A stretch of DNA of 34,058 bases from Candidatus Pacearchaeota archaeon (GCA_018304055.1 JAGVWY010000003.1:1-34058); one strand, 5' to 3'; counted from the stretch's first letter, positions 1,951 to 13,569 are shown. Notes: a model not told the origin generated them from the letters alone. Numbers and translations: made by a program.

Positions 1951-2736
1951 CTAATTTGTATTTTCTACTATCTCATATTTATTCAAAAACTGGAAAATAT
2001 AAGGTTCTGGTTGTGTCTGATTTTCTATAATCATTACTAGTGTTGAATCTGGCTCAAAAGCAATAAAATCAACATAAACATTTTTCTCTTTTGATAATTG
2101 TGCAAGGCAATTAATACAGATAAAATCTTTGTCTTCTTTGTGTGATTCTGTTATATACTCTGCTATTTTTAAAATGTCGTTTAGAGATGATTCAATCTCA
2201 ACAAGGTGCTTATTTAACGAAAATAAAGTTGTTTTACCTTTATTATCAATAGTAAGGTCAAGATTTGTTGTAAAAGTTACTTTATTTTCTAGGATATTAG
2301 TTTTTGTTGATGGATTTGAATAAGATATCTTAAATGTTTTAAAGTTTTCATTTAACTCGTCAATGCAAACAAGAAGTTTGTCATCTACAAAATTTGAAAG
2401 TTCATTCTGAATTTTTTCTTTACTAGGCATAAGGATTTCTCCTTTATAAAAATAGTAAGGAACAAACGCCCATTCTAAATCATAATACTTTTCAGGTTTA
2501 TTATAATAACCTCCTTGAATGCCAGTGGTTTCTAAAGCTTTTAACGATGTTTCTTCTAAACAATCTATACTAAATTCTTGCATATTATTAAGAGACGGTT
2601 CAATGCCTTTTTCAATGAAATACTCCTTATTTATATTTGAACGGGATTTTGAATAGTTCATGAAGACAATTAAAGAGACTATTGCAATGATGATTACTGC
2701 TATAATAACAAACAAAGATATCTGGCCTCTTTTCAT
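1951..2736 (-). CDS. Membrane-anchored pilin-like protein, copy 1
   Basis: The N-terminus MKRGQISLFVIIAVIIIA matches an archaeal class-III signal: basic residue, Gly, then Gln at the predicted cleavage point followed by a hydrophobic helix. The usual acidic residue at about +5 is absent. The remainder (about 230 aa) is predicted extracellular. It is clearly paralogous to the protein at 8366-9142: shared blocks include IQGGYYN, the VPYY/IPYY segment, LMP[ST]KEKI, VDD, and a C-terminal EPY[IV]F[QE]FLNKY. Cysteines are conserved between the two copies, including one before IQGGYYN, one after the VDD block and a CxxC near residue 207, so disulfides are likely. It is first in a two-gene unit with the Gly-rich secreted protein. 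A TATA-like TTTAAATA lies about 25-30 nt upstream. The exact structure it builds is unknown. Confidence 0.75.
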   Translation of the reverse strand: MKRGQISLFVIIAVIIIAIVSLIVFMNYSKSRSNINKEYFIEKGIEPSLNNMQEFSIDCLEETSLKALETTGIQGGYYNKPEKYYDLEWAFVPYYFYKGEILMPSKEKIQNELSNFVDDKLLVCIDELNENFKTFKISYSNPSTKTNILENKVTFTTNLDLTIDNKGKTTLFSLNKHLVEIESSLNDILKIAEYITESHKEDKDFICINCLAQLSKEKNVYVDFIAFEPDSTLVMIIENQTQPEPYIFQFLNKYEIVENTN

Positions 2737-2805: not shown

Positions 2806-3600
2806 CTAAATCATTAAATATCCGCCATTCACGTTTATACACTCTCCATTAATATAACTAGCATTATCAGAAGCTAAAAAACGAACAACTTTTGCAACTT
2901 CTTCAACATCTCCAAATCTCTTGCTAGGAATCTTTTTCTTATATTCTGTCTTTTTCTCATCACTCAATTCAGAAGTCATACCGCAATTAATAAATCCTGG
3001 AGCAACACAGTTTACTCTTATTCCGTAGGCCCCTAAAGCCTTGGCGAAATCTCTAGTTAGCTTAATCATGCCTGCTTTAGAAGCCCCATAACCCAAACTA
3101 GTTGTTGATTCAATTCCCTTAACAGATGAAATATTTACAATGCTGCCTCTTTTATTTCTCAACATATATCCTGCAGCAATATAAGAACAAATAAAACTTC
3201 CTCTTAGATTCACATTTATCTCTTCATCAAATCCACTTAGGTTATCATCTAAATTTTCAAACCATTTAGGAATATTATCAACATTCAAACTTCTCCTAGA
3301 ATTAATTCCCGCATTATTTACTAAAACATCAATGCTTCCAAATTTATCATAAATCTTACTAAACACTTCCTTAACTCTAAATTTATCAGATATATCACAT
3401 TCAAATCCAATGCATAAAGGTTTGTAGTCATAATTGTTATTTTTAATTTTTTCTTTTAATTCATCTAAAGTTCTGACCAATTCAGAAGGATGATGGTTAT
3501 TCCTAGAAATTAAAGCAACATTATAACCACTTAAAGCTAACTCTTCTGTAATAGCTTTTCCTATTCCTCTAGATGCTCCAGTAATAATAGAATTCTTCAT
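2806..3600 (-). CDS. SDR-family NAD(P)-dependent oxidoreductase
   Basis: Classical short-chain dehydrogenase/reductase of 264 aa. The sequence shows the nucleotide-binding TGASRGIG at residues 7-14, NNAG at 95-98, and the catalytic Ser158/159-Tyr171-Lys175 set in SYGASKAG-like context. Substrate is not determined by sequence; FabG-like ketoreductases and sugar or cyclitol dehydrogenases share this fold. Its start overlaps the stop of the radical SAM gene by 4 nt (ATGA), so translation is coupled. It is the last gene of the cluster containing a Gfo/Idh/MocA dehydrogenase and 6-phosphogluconolactonase. Context therefore favours oxidation or reduction of a carbohydrate intermediate over fatty-acid synthesis, but this is inference. 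Confidence 0.85.
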   Translation of the reverse strand: MKNSIITGASRGIGKAITEELALSGYNVALISRNNHHPSELVRTLDELKEKIKNNNYDYKPLCIGFECDISDKFRVKEVFSKIYDKFGSIDVLVNNAGINSRRSLNVDNIPKWFENLDDNLSGFDEEINVNLRGSFICSYIAAGYMLRNKRGSIVNISSVKGIESTTSLGYGASKAGMIKLTRDFAKALGAYGIRVNCVAPGFINCGMTSELSDEKKTEYKKKIPSKRFGDVEEVAKVVRFLASDNASYINGECINVNGGYLMI

Positions 3601-4949
3601 GAAACTAATGCCTCCTGCAAATTAATTCTAGTATCTTTTCCTAAAAAAGCAAAATAATCATTAAATGCCTTAACATATCTTTCATCCATTAAACAAGATC
3701 TCTCTACTCTATCAATAAAATTTCTGCTTTCATAAAAATCACCATGTATCTTTTTCTGTAAATACTTAATAGTTTTTTCATCTAAATATTTGTGGTTGAA
3801 AACCAAATGATTCCTGTCATGTCTCGTTAAATCACTATCAAAAATATATCCTTGTTCAACCATTTCGTATCTAAGCCTGCTCAAAGGTATTGGCGTAAAT
3901 ATTCCAATATTCAATTGATGTATTGGTACATATTTTAATCTCTCTGCATTTTCTAATATATCATCTTCATTTTCCCAAGGGAATCCTATGATATAATATC
4001 CTTGATTAAGAATCCCTGCCTCAACTGATTTATCCAAAACTCTAATAGATTGTTCATAGCTTAAAATATTTTCATTAACACCTTTATTCATTTTCTTTAA
4101 AGAATCGTCATTAGTAGATTCAATACCCCACGCGATTTTGTAGCACCCTGCTTCTTTCATTTCACTAAGTAATTCCCATTCTCCATCAACACTGTCAATA
4201 TTACTCATACAATACCAAGAAAAATCTAATCTTCTTCTAATAATTTCCTGGCAAAGATTATGCACAAATCTTTTTGAAGCTGTGAAATTCATATCTATAA
4301 AATAAAAAATATCTGCTCCTTTATCCTTTAAACCAGACATCTCATCCACAACTCTTTCAGGAGATCTAAAAGAAAGTTTATTCCCATAAAATCCAGGAAC
4401 ATCACAAAACTTGCACTGATAAAAACACCCTCTGCTTGCTTCCATAATTGCATATCCTGGATTTTCAGATAAAGGAGGTATAGAAATACCTTTATAAGGT
4501 TGTTTTAGAATAACATCAAATCTCAATGCATTCGGCAGTTTATCTAAATTAAAATTCCTTTCTCTTGGAGAAGTAAACAATACACTATTTCCTTTTTTAG
4601 CAGCAATTCCTCTAACGTTTTCATAATCTTCGTTTCCTTCAATCTCCATTAATAACTCTCTAAAAATTTCTTCTCCTTCTCCAGAAACAAAAAAATCAAA
4701 TGGCTCTTGAATTAAAACCTCAATTTCTCTTCTCTGATGTAAATAGCTAGAATATCTATTTCCAGCAACATTAACAATATTTTTATTTCTTCTCTTTAGC
4801 TCTCTGGCTATTCTCTTTCCCATGGGATACTGACATGTAAACATAGAATAAGCAGCAATATCAGGCTTAAAATCAACGATTCTTTCAGTCATTTCTTTTT
4901 CATCAATACTAATCACTTTTCCATTAACCTCTTTAAAAGGCATAAACAA
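3597..4949 (-). CDS. B12-type radical SAM protein (main reading frame)
   Basis: Radical SAM enzyme of the cobalamin-binding-domain architecture: a Rossmann-like N-terminal half (about residues 1-140) with the typical FVSGEGEEIFRELL block, then the radical SAM core with CFYQCKFC (Cys175, Cys179, Cys182) for the 4Fe-4S cluster. No clear DxHxxG cobalamin motif is seen in the N-terminal domain, so B12 binding is uncertain. The frame opens here at a TTG with no ribosome binding site, whereas a good ATG with TATA box lies at 5070 in another frame; the true gene is very probably 3597-5070 with a one-base frameshift. Family members modify lipids, cofactors, sugars or aminocyclitols, so the substrate is open. 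It is coupled to the SDR by a 4-nt overlap. Confidence 0.8.
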   Translation of the reverse strand: MFMPFKEVNGKVISIDEKEMTERIVDFKPDIAAYSMFTCQYPMGKRIARELKRRNKNIVNVAGNRYSSYLHQRREIEVLIQEPFDFFVSGEGEEIFRELLMEIEGNEDYENVRGIAAKKGNSVLFTSPRERNFNLDKLPNALRFDVILKQPYKGISIPPLSENPGYAIMEASRGCFYQCKFCDVPGFYGNKLSFRSPERVVDEMSGLKDKGADIFYFIDMNFTASKRFVHNLCQEIIRRRLDFSWYCMSNIDSVDGEWELLSEMKEAGCYKIAWGIESTNDDSLKKMNKGVNENILSYEQSIRVLDKSVEAGILNQGYYIIGFPWENEDDILENAERLKYVPIHQLNIGIFTPIPLSRLRYEMVEQGYIFDSDLTRHDRNHLVFNHKYLDEKTIKYLQKKIHGDFYESRNFIDRVERSCLMDERYVKAFNDYFAFLGKDTRINLQEALVS

Positions 4950-4956
4950 TTCAACA

Positions 4957-5070
4957 TCATGTCCATCTTGTTTTAGCTAAAATCATCTCTAATCCATAAG
5001 GCTCACTAACAGCATGCTGAATCTTTGGGTCAAGTTCAACATCACAAGGATAAATCCCAGCTATTTTCAT
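4957..5070 (-). pseudogene. Displaced 5' end of the radical SAM gene (frameshift)
   Basis: An ATG at 5070 opens MKIAGIYPCDVELDPK, continues as a plausible Rossmann N-terminus, and stops at TGA after 37 codons. Removing one base from the four-T run at 4971-4974 (four A on the coding strand) joins it seamlessly to the next frame: ILAK then QDGHDVELFMPF, typical of this family. The restored protein would be about 490 aa. A TATA-like stretch at about 5088-5097 sits about 25 nt upstream of the ATG, fitting a leaderless start. Either the gene is truly broken, or the assembly has a homopolymer error, or the frameshift is programmed; the first two are more likely. Confidence 0.75.
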
Positions 5071-5169
5071 AATTAAAGAACAGAAAAAATAAATATAATA
5101 TTTACCAATATTTTCACTTGTCTCACTATTCAACTATATTAGATATATGCATAATATTTTTTTCATAAG

Positions 5170-5859
5170 CTAACTTCCGACAAATACATATGACCTTTTT
5201 ACAGAATTAACAATCTTTGCAGGACAATCATAAAGCCCTAAGCTATTATCACAAAAATTTTCATAAGCCTTTCTTTTTTTATCTCCAAAAAATAACAATA
5301 GTCTCAAATCAGACTTTTCTATTAATCTCCTTGAAGCAGACATTCTTTTTGGAGGAGGCTTTGGGGAATTATCAACATAAATATAAAATTCAGAATTGTC
5401 TTCAATAGATGGATGATTAGGATAAAGCGAGCCTACATGCCCATCCTCTCCAGAGCTCAATAAAACAATATCAAATTTTCCCCCAATTTCCTCTAAATCT
5501 TTAGAATACTTCCTAATGCAATCCTCTTTGTTAAGAGAATCATACAAAAAAGGATGAATATTCTCCTCATAAATAAGTGCTCTTCCTAAAAGCTCATCAA
5601 TAAAGCTTTCTTTAGCTAATTTAAAATTACTTTCCTCGCTATTCAAAGGAACTAGCCTTTCATCCACCATAAAAATATGAACTTTTTCCCAGGAAATATT
5701 TCCTTCCTTTAAATTATAAAAAATTCCATTCACTGAACTCCCTCCAGGAATTGCAAGAACAATTCTTTCTTTCTCTCTTGCTAATCTATTAATATTCTCT
5801 GCAATTAAATTAAAAACTTTTTTCTCAAGCACAGATACACTATCATTTATTAGTTCCAT
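5170..5859 (-). CDS. pgl: 6-phosphogluconolactonase
   Basis: Hydrolyses 6-phospho-D-gluconolactone to 6-phosphogluconate in the oxidative pentose phosphate route. The protein (229 aa, normal length) shows AIPGGSS near the N-terminus, the VHIFMVDERLVP block followed by SNFKLAKESF, the LLSSGEDGHVGSLYPNH signature, and SPKPPPKRMS. These separate it from glucosamine-6-phosphate deaminase, its relative. Cytosolic. It follows the Gfo/Idh/MocA-type dehydrogenase by 64 nt, the natural partner if that enzyme makes the lactone. A strong Shine-Dalgarno GGAGGT at 5877-5882 is placed for an ATG at 5871, but that ATG is followed by AGC and an in-frame TAA; the chosen ATG at 5859 comes next in the same frame. 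Confidence 0.85.
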   Translation of the reverse strand: MELINDSVSVLEKKVFNLIAENINRLAREKERIVLAIPGGSSVNGIFYNLKEGNISWEKVHIFMVDERLVPLNSEESNFKLAKESFIDELLGRALIYEENIHPFLYDSLNKEDCIRKYSKDLEEIGGKFDIVLLSSGEDGHVGSLYPNHPSIEDNSEFYIYVDNSPKPPPKRMSASRRLIEKSDLRLLLFFGDKKRKAYENFCDNSLGLYDCPAKIVNSVKRSYVFVGS

Positions 5860-5923
5860 TGTTTAGCTCATTAAATACCTCCATTCATAAAAGGTAAATT
5901 CCATATTCGCATAATTTCATCGT

Positions 5924-7144
5924 TTAAAAGATTTTTAATGGTGTTGCTCTTTCATAAATGTAAAATATATCCTTCACGTTTTTAATAGCTTTGTTAATTG
6001 AAGTAAAGGATTCTTTTCCTCTAGAAATACAATCATATAAATCAGTGAAAACATAATAGAATGCATCTCTCGAAAAAATCTTATCTTCTATAACAACACC
6101 CTTGCTATCATATACACGCAGGCTTTTATCACCCATTTTAAGTTCAACCCTTCCATTTTCATGATGAATAACAAATAGTTTCTTTTTTTGGTAACGGGGG
6201 TCTTTTCCTGCTAATACATTTACATTACAATTATGGAAAGAATCTCCTGTAACATAGAAATTAGCATCTATAGAAGTTTCTCTATACCTACTATCTTTTA
6301 TTGTTGGATCATCCATTTTTAATAGATTTGCTTTCACATCATTATCATAATCAATTTCCCCACCTAGATTCCTTATGAAAGCAATAGCATGAATTCCTGT
6401 ATCAAGCCACATGCCTCCTCCAGATTTTTCAATATCTATAATATCTCTATTTCTTTGGTTTGAAAAGTCCTCTTTCTCAAGAATATACAATTCTATACCC
6501 TTAACCATACCGAATCTTTCAGTATATTTATCAAAATAACGAAAATACTCTCTAACATTAGGATAATGAGAATAATGTTCTGCATCACTTACTACTCGTT
6601 CTCTTAAATCTAAATTAGAAAAATAATCTTCGAATTCTAAAATTTCCTCAAGTGAAGAAGAAAGCGGTTTTTCTATGATTAAGTTAGCATCGGTTTTTTC
6701 TAAAATCTGTTTTGCGAGGGTAATATGAAATTTATTTGGCACAGAAACATCAAAAATATCTCCTTTGCATATATTACCTAGAAATTCATCAGAAATAATA
6801 GGTTCGATAGGATCCATAGAGAAATATTTTATCATCCCATTTGATAAACCGCTAACAATTTCAGATTCTACTTTTTCATTCAAACTGCCCTTTAACCTGA
6901 CTGTTTTTATCACGTTTAATAAACCAGCAATTCTGCTTTGATCACTGAATTCTTCATACTCATATATATCTCCTATTGAAGAAATCTCAAAAATATTATT
7001 TAGATTTTCTAAGATAACAGGATATTTCCTGATAAGACATGCATCACCTAATCCTCCTAAAAAATGAATTCTTATCTTTTCCTGGTCAAAGTCTTTGGTT
7101 GCCTCATTTTTTTCTAAGCATTCTAATGTAAACTCATTAGTCAT
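5924..7144 (-). CDS. Gfo/Idh/MocA-like dehydrogenase, Zwf-like N-terminus
   Basis: Probable NAD(P)-dependent sugar or cyclitol oxidoreductase of 406 aa. Near residue 29 the sequence FLGGLGDACLIRKYPVIL resembles the GxxGDLxxRKLxPxL nucleotide-binding motif of glucose-6-phosphate dehydrogenase. Further on come VPNKFHITLAKQIL, the family lysine in LIIEKPLS, EHYSHYPN (compare the catalytic His region of Zwf), and GGGMWLDTGIHAI, which is typical of Gfo/Idh/MocA proteins. The adjacent 6-phosphogluconolactonase suggests that it oxidises a sugar phosphate to a lactone. That substrate is inferred; inositol or other sugar oxidation is possible. It is first in the minus-strand cluster, with an AT-rich 230-nt upstream region shared with the divergent AbrB-PhoU gene. 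Confidence 0.7.
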   Translation of the reverse strand: MTNEFTLECLEKNEATKDFDQEKIRIHFLGGLGDACLIRKYPVILENLNNIFEISSIGDIYEYEEFSDQSRIAGLLNVIKTVRLKGSLNEKVESEIVSGLSNGMIKYFSMDPIEPIISDEFLGNICKGDIFDVSVPNKFHITLAKQILEKTDANLIIEKPLSSSLEEILEFEDYFSNLDLRERVVSDAEHYSHYPNVREYFRYFDKYTERFGMVKGIELYILEKEDFSNQRNRDIIDIEKSGGGMWLDTGIHAIAFIRNLGGEIDYDNDVKANLLKMDDPTIKDSRYRETSIDANFYVTGDSFHNCNVNVLAGKDPRYQKKKLFVIHHENGRVELKMGDKSLRVYDSKGVVIEDKIFSRDAFYYVFTDLYDCISRGKESFTSINKAIKNVKDIFYIYERATPLKIF

Positions 7145-7376: not shown

Positions 7377-8369
7377 ATGAAAAGAAAGGTCATAAAACAA
7401 GGACATAATACTCTAACAATAACTATTCCTAGTAAATGGGCTAAAAGATTTAATTTAAGCGCAGGTGATGAAATTGATCTTTTTGAAAGAGAAAACGGCC
7501 TTTTTATTTCAACTGAAAAACGAAACGAATTTCTAAAAACAGAATTAAATATGTCAGGTCTCGACATCCCAACAATATGGAAATATTTTATGGCTATATA
7601 TAGAGAAGGATACGATGAAATAATCATGAAGTTCAATCCAAATTCAAAATGGGATAGTCCATACAAATTTTTCATCCATCATAAATTAGACCAAAAATAT
7701 GGTAAGGATAGTTTAAAGAAAAATCCAGTGGAGTTCTTGCAAGAATTAGTAAACAGGTTCATTGGATATGAAATAATCAATTATGGGAAAGACTTTGTTA
7801 CAATAAAAGAAATGAGCGAGCCAACTTCAAGAGAGTTTGATAATGCGCTTAGAAGAATTTTTCTTCTTTTGCAGCAAATGGCAGAAGAAATCTGCGAATC
7901 ATTAGACAGTAAGGATACAAAAACATTAAGTCATATTCATGACATTGATACAAATATTGATAAATTTCATGATTATTGTATAAGAATCCTGAATAAAATT
8001 GGAAATAAAGATTCAAAGAAATCTTCTATTTTTTTCTCAATTCTCTTCTTTCTTGAGCTAATCGGAGATGAATTCAAAAATATTTCACATCATCTCCTCT
8101 ATGATTTCCAAAAAGGTGACTACAATCACATAAAAGATGTAACAGAGTCAATAAAACAGCAATTCGACTTATTCTATGAAATTTTCTATAAATTTGATGA
8201 TAATAAAATCATCAAAATGTCTGAATTAGATAAGTCCAGATATTTTAATGTAGAAAACGTATATAAAAAAGTAAAAAAAGACGAGGAAAAAGAAATCTTC
8301 CATCATATTAGAATTATAACTCGATATATAAATGCATTAACAGAGCTAAGAATTGAGATGGAATTCTAA
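7377..8369 (+). CDS. AbrB-PhoU phosphate-uptake regulator-like protein
   Basis: Residues 1-48 form a SpoVT/AbrB swapped-hairpin DNA-binding domain (VIKQGHNTLTITIPSKWAKRFNLSAGDEI). From about residue 115 onward the protein is helical, with PhoU-like repeats (QQMAEEICESL, SHIHDIDTNIDKFHDYCIRILNKIG). This AbrB-PhoU architecture is common in archaea and is usually annotated as a phosphate uptake regulator. No pst transporter genes are in the window, so the regulon is unknown. Its 3' end overlaps the convergent pilin-like gene by 4 nt. Length (330 aa) is normal for the family. Confidence 0.85.
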   Translation: MKRKVIKQGHNTLTITIPSKWAKRFNLSAGDEIDLFERENGLFISTEKRNEFLKTELNMSGLDIPTIWKYFMAIYREGYDEIIMKFNPNSKWDSPYKFFIHHKLDQKYGKDSLKKNPVEFLQELVNRFIGYEIINYGKDFVTIKEMSEPTSREFDNALRRIFLLLQQMAEEICESLDSKDTKTLSHIHDIDTNIDKFHDYCIRILNKIGNKDSKKSSIFFSILFFLELIGDEFKNISHHLLYDFQKGDYNHIKDVTESIKQQFDLFYEIFYKFDDNKIIKMSELDKSRYFNVENVYKKVKKDEEKEIFHHIRIITRYINALTELRIEMEF

Positions 8370-9142
8370 ACTACATATTTATTCAAAAACTCAAAAACAT
8401 AAGGTTCTGAACTTGTGTAATTTTCAGAGATTACTATTAACGTGCTTGATTCATCGCCAAAATCGAGCATATCTACATATAAATTTTTAGATTCAGCCAT
8501 GTCTGCAACACAGCTAATACACACAAATTCTGGGTCTTCTTTATGTCCTTCTGTTATATAAGAAGCAACTTCTAAAATATCTGAAAGTGCCGATTCAATC
8601 TCTACAGGATGATTTGATAGTTCAAATTCAGAACTTGAATCATCTTTTTTAAAAGTAATTTTTAAATCTGTTATAAAACTTACTTTTTTCTCTTCGATTG
8701 TTGCAGTTGTTTTAGAGTTATCATAAGATATACTAAATTCATTATACTCAAGTTCATTAAGGCAAGCAGCAAGATTATCATCAACATACAGAGAAAGTTC
8801 TTGTTCAATTTTTTCTTTAGTTGGCATTAGAAATATTCCTTCATAGTAATAATACGGAATAAAAGTCCAGCCTAAATCAACATTTTTTTCAGGAGCATTG
8901 TAATAACCTCCTTGAATTCCTATTATAACTAATGAATCTCTTGCAGTATTCTCAACACAATCCAGAATTGATGACTGAACTAGAGAAGACTGGGTTTTAA
9001 TTCCGAGTTTGGAAAATATGTTATCTAGTTTTGTTTTTGATTGAGAGAAATTAATGATTAAAAATATCACTGCAACTGCAATGATTATAACTGCTATAAT
9101 GATGAAGACAGAAATTTGTCCTCGCTTTCCTCTTTTTTTCAT
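8366..9142 (-). CDS. Membrane-anchored pilin-like protein, copy 2
   Basis: Paralogue of the protein at 1951-2736. The N-terminus MKKRGKRGQISVFIIIAVII again gives a class-III-type signal (RG before QIS) and one membrane helix. Shared blocks are DC[LV]E, IQGGYYN, PYYYYEG, LMPTKEKI, VDD, HKEDPEFVCISC and EPYVFEFLNKY. The CxxC (here CISC) and the other cysteines are retained, arguing for structural disulfides outside the membrane. Unlike copy 1, it has no Gly-rich partner downstream and stands alone between the convergent AbrB-PhoU gene and the divergent truB. A TATA-like TTTATATA lies about 25 nt upstream of the ATG. Confidence 0.75.
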   Translation of the reverse strand: MKKRGKRGQISVFIIIAVIIIAVAVIFLIINFSQSKTKLDNIFSKLGIKTQSSLVQSSILDCVENTARDSLVIIGIQGGYYNAPEKNVDLGWTFIPYYYYEGIFLMPTKEKIEQELSLYVDDNLAACLNELEYNEFSISYDNSKTTATIEEKKVSFITDLKITFKKDDSSSEFELSNHPVEIESALSDILEVASYITEGHKEDPEFVCISCVADMAESKNLYVDMLDFGDESSTLIVISENYTSSEPYVFEFLNKYVV

Positions 9143-12296: not shown

Positions 12297-12671
12297 CTAA
12301 GTATTTTTCTTAAAGAAATATTTATCGCTTATTGCATTGTAAAGTTTTTCTAAAAATTTTTCTGATGTATTATGCTCCATGCCCTCAATAGGACAACGAG
12401 TAATTTTAATTGCATATGTTTTCTGTTCATCAGGACCTGTATACGCTGTTCCCAATCCATGGTAAAAATAATTTTTAATTATGTCATCAATAGTTTGCTC
12501 TAATCTTGATAGTGCTCTATGAAATAATCTCATTGATTCATTCGGTCTAAATTCAATATCAATGTTATTATTTTCTTGATCAAGATTCCCCCTTATTCTA
12601 ATATTTTGGAAAAATCCGCTGTTTTCTAAAAGTTCTCTAATTGCATTTTGTAATTCTTGCTTTGGTTTCAT
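12297..12671 (-). CDS. Hypothetical protein (124 aa)
   Basis: Not recognised. Soluble, mixed alpha/beta, with a helical N-terminus (KQELQNAIRELLENSGFF), a beta-strand-like IDIEFRP, a helix through LFHRALSRLEQTIDDIIKNYF and a further strand at TYAIKITRCP. No signal peptide or membrane segment. A TATA-like ACTATATATAG lies about 25 nt upstream of its ATG. The roughly 170 nt between it and 12128 hold no clear gene. Confidence 0.6.
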   Translation of the reverse strand: MKPKQELQNAIRELLENSGFFQNIRIRGNLDQENNNIDIEFRPNESMRLFHRALSRLEQTIDDIIKNYFYHGLGTAYTGPDEQKTYAIKITRCPIEGMEHNTSEKFLEKLYNAISDKYFFKKNT

Positions 12672-12715
12672 ACTATTAAAGAGGCAATAAACTATATATA
12701 GTTTCCTTAATGATA

Positions 12716-12816
12716 TGGATAACTGCGTGATTTATAACACCATAGTCGCAGTTTTCCAGATAGAGAACAGCAAAATAAATGAGACATAAGCTATGCAGTT
12801 CTCTATAACAGGAAAA
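12716..12816. repeat. Two adjacent long inverted repeats
   Basis: First: 12716-12727 pairs with 12747-12758 (11 of 12 positions; core AACTGCG/CGCAGTT). Second: 12752-12771 pairs with 12795-12816, combining TTTTCC/GGAAAA with ATAGAGAAC/GTTCTCTAT and a small bulge. The arms share bases 12752-12758, so the two hairpins are alternatives at that point. The element is just 3' of the ZIP gene (stop at 12829, minus strand), so it may end or protect that transcript. Confidence 0.6.
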
Positions 12817-12828
12817 AATATTTTTTAG

Positions 12829-13569
12829 CTATCCTACAAGATATTTTGCCGTGATTAGCAATATTATTCCTATGATTATAAACAATATATTTGTTATTAT
12901 TTTTTTCTTATTTTTTTCTTTAAATATTTCAGGAGTTAAGTCTGCAAGCGCAATATATAGAAATCCTCCTGCAGTAAATGGTAAAAGGTAAATGACATAT
13001 TCTTTTGTTGTTAAAAAAAAGTATCCTAGTATTCCTCCAATTACTGAAGTAATTTGAGACAAAAAATTATAGAAAAGTGCTTTTTTCTTTTCCAAACCTC
13101 CATACACTAAAACACCGAAATCCCCGATCTCCTGAGGAAGTTCATGCGCCATAATTAGTATACTAGTAATAAAACCGAATGGAATTGAAATCAAAAATGA
13201 ACCTGCTATTATTAATCCATCTAAGAAATTATGAAGCGCATCTCCCCATAGCAATAAATAAGTAAAAGGATGTTCTTCACATTCTCCTTCATGACAGTGA
13301 TGCCAATGTAGAAACTTTTCTATAGCCAAAAATCCAAAAAATCCAACTAGCGTTATAAAGAATGTTTGTTTGATTGATATTTTTTCAATTGATTCTGGAA
13401 TAAAATGAAATAAAGCCCCTCCAATTAATGCCCCTGTTGTAAATGATACTAAAAAAATGAGAAATTTCTTTATATTTTTTCTGAAAATTATATAGAAAAT
13501 AGCTCCTGCAAATGCCAATAATCCATTAATAATAGTCATCACTATAATCCAAAATAAAACCTCTGCCAT
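12829..13569 (-). CDS. ZIP-family metal transporter
   Basis: Imports divalent metal, probably zinc or iron. About eight hydrophobic helices; the metal-path motifs HNFLDG (about residues 113-118) and HELPQEIGDF (about 142-151) are intact, and a His-rich loop HWHHCHEGECEEH (about 88-100) is the usual variable metal-binding loop. The start at 13569 (MAEVLFW) is preferred over an ATG at 13584 because the TATA box TTTATAAA at 13590-13597 lies about 25 nt upstream, so 13584 would precede the expected transcription start. Divergent from a Fur-family gene with a palindromic operator between them, which points to metal-dependent repression. Confidence 0.9.
   Translation of the reverse strand: MAEVLFWIIVMTIINGLLAFAGAIFYIIFRKNIKKFLIFLVSFTTGALIGGALFHFIPESIEKISIKQTFFITLVGFFGFLAIEKFLHWHHCHEGECEEHPFTYLLLWGDALHNFLDGLIIAGSFLISIPFGFITSILIMAHELPQEIGDFGVLVYGGLEKKKALFYNFLSQITSVIGGILGYFFLTTKEYVIYLLPFTAGGFLYIALADLTPEIFKEKNKKKIITNILFIIIGIILLITAKYLVG

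What the first reader, a model, noticed from the sequence alone, without database searches (positions are those of the whole stretch)
2806..7144. Zwf-like dehydrogenase, lactonase, radical SAM and SDR in one cluster: candidate undescribed oxidative carbohydrate module
Seen: four same-strand genes, a Gfo/Idh/MocA-like enzyme with a Zwf-like RKxxP nucleotide loop, a clear 6-phosphogluconolactonase, a B12-type radical SAM protein and an SDR coupled by ATGA. Known: G6PDH plus 6PGL make 6-phosphogluconate; radical SAM plus Gfo/Idh and SDR enzymes occur in cyclitol and aminosugar pathways. Inference: a DPANN archaeon oxidises a sugar phosphate to a lactone, opens it, and further modifies it by radical chemistry. 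I know of no pathway with this set.
Basis: partly seen in the sequence, partly recalled or inferred. Interest (0 to 1): 0.65.

Follow-up and report, generated by a model that had tools for sequence, protein, structure and literature searches.

The report
Sugar-phosphate oxidation and radical-enzyme cluster
A small-genome (DPANN) archaeon carries neighbouring genes that probably oxidise a sugar phosphate to a lactone and open it, beside a radical enzyme of unknown substrate; relatives keep the set but mostly use an unrelated lactone-opening enzyme.

Summary
All four genes exist at the stated places, on one strand, in a Pacearchaeota-type DPANN genome. The cluster is really conserved: all six archaeal loci with this radical SAM protein have the dehydrogenase (DH) within about 4 kb. 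But it is two joined modules. Module 1 is DH plus a lactonase. The DH is a divergent Gfo/Idh/MocA enzyme (K-D-H triad kept) with some Zwf-like motifs; it is not a Zwf. In six relatives the 6-phosphogluconolactonase (PGL) slot holds a PF04199 'cyclase'. At 45 DPANN 6-phosphogluconate dehydrogenase (Gnd) loci, cyclase (16) and PGL (13) never co-occur, so PF04199 is probably an unrelated 6-phosphogluconolactonase. [quoted passage not shown] Module 2 (methyltransferase, B12-type radical SAM, SDR) also occurs in a Clostridia bin without DH; its substrate is unknown. The window genome also has canonical Zwf, PGL and Gnd elsewhere, so here module 1 is redundant or acts on another sugar phosphate. The radical SAM gene is frameshifted in this assembly. 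No enzyme activity is shown.

The parts
5924..7144 (-). Gfo/Idh/MocA-superfamily dehydrogenase (DH) with Zwf-like sugar-phosphate motifs; proposed sugar-6-phosphate 1-dehydrogenase
   Evidence: K159/D248/H252 triad, invariant H190-Y191 and E289-T290...K314; best folds are Gfo/Idh/MocA
5170..5859 (-). 6-phosphogluconolactonase (PGL, devB type)
   Evidence: TIGR01198 above cut-off; best solved relatives are 6-phosphogluconolactonases 1vl1/1pbt, 7e-22
3597..5070 (-). B12-binding-type radical SAM protein, broken by a small indel near 4974 (N-terminal part 5070-4975 in frame -3, rest 4973-3597 in frame -1)
   Evidence: 52-57% identity to intact relatives; CxxxCxxC kept (SRGCFYQCKFC)
2806..3600 (-). 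Classical SDR oxidoreductase, ATGA-coupled to the radical SAM gene
   Evidence: TGASRGIG and YxxxK kept; 51-60% identical to the SDRs next to rSAM in L016, L017, L055
7377..8369 (+). AbrB/MazE-PhoU two-domain protein, divergently transcribed; candidate regulator of the cluster
   Evidence: PF04014 1e-9, PF01895 3e-7; same divergent neighbour in L012, L013, L016, L017, L018, L055

Best explanation
The locus joins two conserved modules. Module 1 (DH + PGL) most likely oxidises C1 of a hexose 6-phosphate, probably glucose 6-phosphate or a close relative, with NAD(P)+ to a 6-phospho-aldonolactone, which PGL hydrolyses to the 6-phospho-aldonate. The DH is a lineage of the Gfo/Idh/MocA superfamily that works like Zwf but is not a member of the Zwf family. 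In most relatives an unrelated PF04199 hydrolase does the lactone-opening step. Module 2 (B12-type radical SAM + SDR, usually with a class I methyltransferase) modifies a carbohydrate or sugar-derived substrate: a radical step, followed or preceded by SDR redox of a hydroxyl or keto group. Shown by sequence: gene identities, catalytic motifs, co-conservation, lactonase swap. Inferred: lactone chemistry. Conjectured: G6P as substrate, and any substrate link between the modules.
For: rSAM and DH co-occur: strong rSAM hits (E below 1e-260) in 4 of 369 genomes, all among the 8 DH genomes (hypergeometric 9e-8, not corrected for relatedness), plus DH near rSAM in L055 (Aenigmatarchaeota) and L057. 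Lactonase swap: the six DH genomes with the cyclase are the only ones with a strong cyclase hit among 137; G000 and G003 lack it and carry PGL after DH. Independent support: at 45 DPANN Gnd loci, 16 have PF04199, 13 have PGL, none both, with orders such as Gnd-Zwf-CYC, Zwf-Gnd-CYC and Zwf-Gnd-PGL. L057 reads DH-CYC-CYC-Gnd-cupin, its Gnd is above the TIGR00872 cut-off, and its genome has no Zwf match. The cupin profile hits archaeal cupin glucose-6-phosphate isomerases (2e-4). DH keeps the K-D-H triad and shows Zwf-like HYxxK (8 of 10) and ET...K (10 of 10). Fold neighbours include glucose-fructose oxidoreductase and a scyllo-inositol/L-glucose dehydrogenase solved with an L-glucono-1,5-lactone. 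MT-rSAM-SDR occurs in Clostridia L058 without DH.
Against: The window genome has Zwf (C40) plus a second PGL and Gnd (C28), so a second G6P oxidation would be redundant unless substrate, cofactor or regulation differs. The HYxxK lysine is Tyr in the window and G003 (HYSHY). None of the six DH genomes with the cyclase had a Gnd match, so the fate of the aldonate is unknown there; they are 60-87% complete. Profile similarity to Zwf is modest (1.7e-6). In L055 no lactonase is seen (contig end) and the catalytic His is Tyr. The window rSAM frame is broken. No substrate, cofactor or activity can be read from these data.
Confidence: 0.55

Rival explanations
1. The DH oxidises C3 of a hexose phosphate or nucleotide sugar (as NtdC or GnnA do), and the whole cluster makes an unusual nucleotide sugar for a surface glycan; PGL and cyclase then act on another ester or lactone.
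For: Fold neighbours include UDP-GlcNAc 3-dehydrogenase GnnA and the sugar 3-ketoreductase KijD10. In L016 the same operon holds PMM/PGM, a nucleotidyltransferase and a GalE-like epimerase. NtdC as a Gfo/Idh/MocA enzyme acting on G6P at C3 is from own knowledge.
Against: A lactonase of one of two unrelated families follows DH in nine of ten loci (L055 begins at a contig end); PGL is above the 6PGL cut-off; in L057 the neighbours are Gnd and a PGI-like cupin.
Confidence: 0.2
2. Radical SAM plus SDR work like AprD4/AprD3: radical dehydration of a 1,2-diol of a sugar or aldonate, then reduction of the carbonyl, giving a deoxy product.
For: AprD4 is the best solved sequence relative of the rSAM profile (9e-14); [quoted passage not shown] rSAM and SDR are adjacent in four archaeal loci.
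Against: Among NCBIfam models BchE, PhpK and others score far above AprD4 (148.7 and 108.7 vs 56.3 bits); the PDB ranking reflects few solved structures. L018 and L057 have the rSAM without an adjacent SDR.
Confidence: 0.2
3. The adjacency is an island of functionally separate genes under one regulator (AbrB-PhoU), with no single pathway.
For: The modules separate in other genomes; the window cluster and regulator lie between two 50%-identical paralogs.
Against: Similar operon-like arrangement in loci assigned to Pacearchaeota, Aenigmatarchaeota and an unclassified archaeon; overlapping or near-overlapping genes in L016.
Confidence: 0.2
4. The rSAM gene is a pseudogene here and only DH-PGL (and perhaps the SDR) is active in this organism.
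For: Frame break near 4974; the methyltransferase partner is missing (best hit in the genome is a 32% paralog).
Against: The remaining 450-aa frame is intact with conserved motifs; two other genes of the same assembly (Gnd and SIS on C28) are also frame-broken, which suggests assembly errors.
Confidence: 0.35

Closest known systems
Glucose-6-phosphate dehydrogenase Zwf (G6PDH family)
   Same: Two-domain Rossmann fold; EKP, HY(xxK), D...H, ET...K in colinear order; proposed same reaction; Foldseek finds H. pylori and L. mesenteroides G6PDH within its first 50 hits
   Different: No G6PDH family hit in Pfam or NCBIfam; profile closer to Gfo/Idh/MocA; a canonical Zwf is present in the same genome
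Gfo/Idh/MocA superfamily (GFOR, levoglucosan DH, scyllo-inositol/L-glucose DH, NtdC)
   Same: Best fold matches, EKP plus DxxxH catalytic residues, profile match 5.8e-15
   Different: Window protein scores below the Pfam gathering cut-offs; ET...K and HY(xxK) features; context with phosphosugar enzymes
6-phosphogluconolactonase (devB/pgl, TIGR01198)
   Same: Above curated cut-off with GxDGH and DER motifs
   Different: Paired with a non-Zwf dehydrogenase; a second PGL lies with Gnd, Tkt and Tal on another contig
PF04199 cyclase / arylformamidase / isatin hydrolase family (in relatives)
   Same: Metal motif HxxTHxDAPxH kept
   Different: Genomic context is DH, Zwf and Gnd, not tryptophan breakdown; below the TIGR03035 arylformamidase cut-off
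AprD4/AprD3 and other B12-type radical SAM systems (BchE, PhpK, TokK)
   Same: Domain order, CxxxCxxC; radical SAM next to an oxidoreductase
   Different: No equivalog cut-off reached for any named family
Haloarchaeal SDR-type G6PDH (archaeal Zwischenferment)
   Same: An archaeal, non-Zwf enzyme for the proposed reaction; three non-homologous G6PDH types are described (PMC8506132)
   Different: That enzyme is an SDR; this DH is Gfo/Idh/MocA-like

Membership tests
Zwf (G6PDH family) | Match to PF02781/PF00479 or TIGR00871 | tested here: not met
   No such hit in Pfam or NCBIfam scans of DH up to E 0.1; no G6PDH among the 60 chains shown for the DH profile
Zwf (G6PDH family) | DHYxxK substrate motif | tested here: inconclusive
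   HY invariant in 10 of 10, xxK in 8 of 10, not in the window protein (HYSHY)
Zwf (G6PDH family) | Oxidation of glucose 6-phosphate | not testable with these tools
   Needs an enzyme assay
Gfo/Idh/MocA superfamily | Fold and K-D-H catalytic residues | tested here: met
   K159 and D248 invariant, H252 nearly invariant; top Foldseek hits; profile 5.8e-15
6-phosphogluconolactonase (TIGR01198) | Score above curated cut-off and GxDGH motif | tested here: met
   142.5 vs 124.45 bits; SSGEDGH
B12-type radical SAM | CxxxCxxC and B12-binding-like N-terminal domain | tested here: met
   the N-terminal part lies across a frameshift; cobalamin binding itself not testable
AprD4 radical SAM diol dehydratase | Match to NF033070 at cut-off (500 bits) | tested here: not met
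   56.3 bits
Classical SDR | TGxxxGIG and YxxxK | tested here: met
PF04199 acting as 6-phosphogluconolactonase (in relatives) | Takes the PGL position in Zwf/Gnd operons and does not co-occur with PGL | tested here: met
   16 vs 13 vs 0 both at 45 Gnd loci; activity not testable

The most novel reading that the evidence does not exclude
Probability: 0.2. Interest if true: 0.78.

Novelty: new variant of a known kind. Interest (0 to 1): 0.6.

Why it matters
The oxidative pentose phosphate branch was long assumed absent from most archaea; G6PDH and 6PGDH have since been reported in a few groups, Pacearchaeota among them (PMC8506132). If right, this adds a new enzyme type for the first step, explains who opens the lactone at many DPANN Gnd loci that have no PGL nearby, and gives directly assayable proteins: the lactonase prediction needs one spectrophotometric assay. 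The radical SAM/SDR module points to unexplored carbohydrate chemistry in organisms with very small genomes.

Tried and rejected
DH as the genome's missing G6PDH: rejected for the window genome, since canonical Zwf, PGL and Gnd are present. DH as a Zwf family member: rejected. PGL-family protein as glucosamine-6-phosphate deaminase: rejected by scores (TIGR01198 142.5 bits vs nagB 30.7). rSAM as an AprD4 or BchE orthologue: no equivalog cut-off reached. More distant rSAM hits (L036-L041) show none of the DH, SDR or close methyltransferase partners within about 1.5 kb. Shared inverted repeats between the regulator and the cluster: only AT-rich, chance-like repeats. Literature searches for PF04199 as a lactonase, for a DPANN lactonase and for a cyclase next to 6PGDH gave nothing on point.

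Full report
Observation. The four ORFs are at the stated coordinates on the minus strand: DH 5924-7144, PGL 5170-5859, radical SAM 3597-4949, SDR 2806-3600, with a 4-base ATGA overlap between the last two. Family scans: DH is a weak Gfo/Idh/MocA match (below the Pfam cut-offs), PGL is above the TIGR01198 cut-off, the rSAM has a radical SAM core and a B12-binding-like domain, the SDR is classical. The rSAM gene continues upstream to about 5070 in another frame: relatives' residues 1-32 match 5070-4975 in frame -3, the rest from 4973 in frame -1. Two further genes on another contig of this assembly (Gnd and a SIS-domain isomerase on C28) are frame-broken too, so an assembly error is at least as likely as a real mutation.

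Source. The window is contig 11 of a 1.23-Mb genome, 92% complete.

Co-conservation. DH occurs in 8 of 369 related genomes, the close rSAM in 4, all four inside the eight (hypergeometric 9e-8; related genomes are not independent, so this is a guide only). Outside them, L055 (Aenigmatarchaeota) has DH, cupin, regulator, methyltransferase, rSAM, SDR, and L057 (unclassified archaeon) has DH, two cyclases, Gnd, cupin, methyltransferase, rSAM. So all six archaeal loci with this rSAM have the DH within about 4 kb; the SDR is adjacent in four; the methyltransferase is adjacent in five (not in the window). In L016 the set is one nine-gene run: methyltransferase, rSAM, SDR, DH, cyclase, cupin, PMM/PGM, nucleotidyltransferase, epimerase. 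DH with a lactonase but no rSAM nearby is seen in G003, G006, G012 (short contig) and G051. A Clostridia bin (L058) has methyltransferase, rSAM and SDR with an AA_kinase, an NDK-domain protein and ABC transporter genes, without DH. Hence two modules.

The lactonase swap. In six of the eight DH genomes DH is followed by a PF04199 'cyclase' and a cupin; the other two (the window genome and G003) gave no match for either anywhere in the genome and have PGL next to DH (G003 is only 76% complete). Strong cyclase hits occur in no other of 137 genomes. This suggested that PF04199 and PGL do the same job. The idea was tested away from the cluster: 36 newly fetched and 9 earlier Gnd loci of DPANN genomes were scanned with profiles for both lactonases, Zwf, DH, Gnd, transketolase and others. 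Sixteen had the cyclase, thirteen PGL, none both, sixteen neither (some stretches are short) (chance of no overlap 9e-4, not corrected for relatedness). Orders include Gnd-Zwf-cyclase (L091, L136), Zwf-Gnd-cyclase (L152, L153, L159) and Zwf-Gnd-PGL (L093, L139, L141). The DH-linked cyclases are about 40 residues longer and only about 24% identical to the Gnd-linked ones, so the job may differ in detail.

What the DH is. By profile it is nearest to Gfo/Idh/MocA (5.8e-15) and less near to Zwf (1.7e-6), although the Zwf alignment runs colinearly over 279 columns, while the four ordinary Gfo/Idh/MocA proteins used here align to Zwf over only 26 columns (2.5e-3). Predicted structures of the window protein (pLDDT 83) and of the L057 protein (pLDDT 89) both put Gfo/Idh/MocA enzymes first, with G6PDHs first appearing at rank 28 and rank 37. 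The K-D-H triad is present; HY is invariant, HYxxK is in 8 of 10 but reads HYSHY in the window and G003; E-T and a lysine 25 residues on in the window protein are invariant, the same spacing as in the genome's own Zwf. That HYxxK and a later lysine bind the phosphate in Zwf is from own knowledge of the L. mesenteroides structure. L057's genome has no PF02781 match, and its cluster is DH-cyclase-cyclase-Gnd-cupin, the best single case for a Zwf-like role. The window genome, however, has Zwf on C40 and PGL and Gnd on C28; there the DH must differ in substrate, cofactor or control, or be redundant.

Mechanism. Most likely: hexose 6-phosphate + NAD(P)+ to 6-phospho-aldonolactone (DH), then hydrolysis (PGL here). 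Gene presence, motifs and the swap are shown; lactone chemistry is inferred; glucose 6-phosphate is the favoured substrate because the neighbours in relatives (PGI-like cupin, PGM/PMM, Gnd in L057) share it. For rSAM+SDR the evidence does not choose between radical dehydration with reduction (AprD4/AprD3 style, PMC5461906), methylation and other radical steps; the protein is not within any named equivalog.

Novelty. The literature names three non-homologous G6PDH types (Zwf, F420-dependent, SDR) and notes G6PDH and 6PGDH in Pacearchaeota (PMC8506132). No paper found links PF04199 to 6-phosphogluconolactonase, but the library lacks most subscription journals. I rate this a new variant of a known kind: known enzyme superfamilies in an undescribed combination, with two testable function predictions.

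Noticed in passing
L091 2586-5507; L136; L152; L159 (other DPANN genomes): PF04199 'cyclase' genes sit in Zwf-Gnd operons in place of PGL and never beside PGL at 45 Gnd loci: candidate unrelated 6-phosphogluconolactonase.
   Followed up: yes
L019 (G000:C28) 12361-13346 and 5676-6546: Gnd is split by a near-perfect short tandem duplication and the SIS-domain isomerase gene is split too; with the rSAM frame break this suggests indel errors in this assembly.
   Followed up: partly
window 1951-2736 and 8366-9142: Two 50%-identical proteins starting with an RGQIS(L/V)F hydrophobic segment flank the cluster plus regulator on both sides, as if the island lies within a duplicated gene.
   Followed up: partly
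window 7377-8369 and L012, L013, L016, L017, L018, L055: An AbrB/MazE-PhoU fusion protein is a conserved divergent neighbour of the cluster; L018 has two copies in tandem.
   Followed up: partly
L058 8489-17378: Clostridia bin with methyltransferase, rSAM, AA_kinase, NDK-domain protein, SDR, NTP_transf_5 and ABC-transporter genes: looks like an undescribed natural-product-like cluster.
   Followed up: no
L057 11476-13080: A second B12-binding radical SAM gene directly follows the first.
   Followed up: no
L012 10300-11109: Protein without a Pfam match downstream of DH-PGL in G003, where the window has rSAM and SDR.
   Followed up: no
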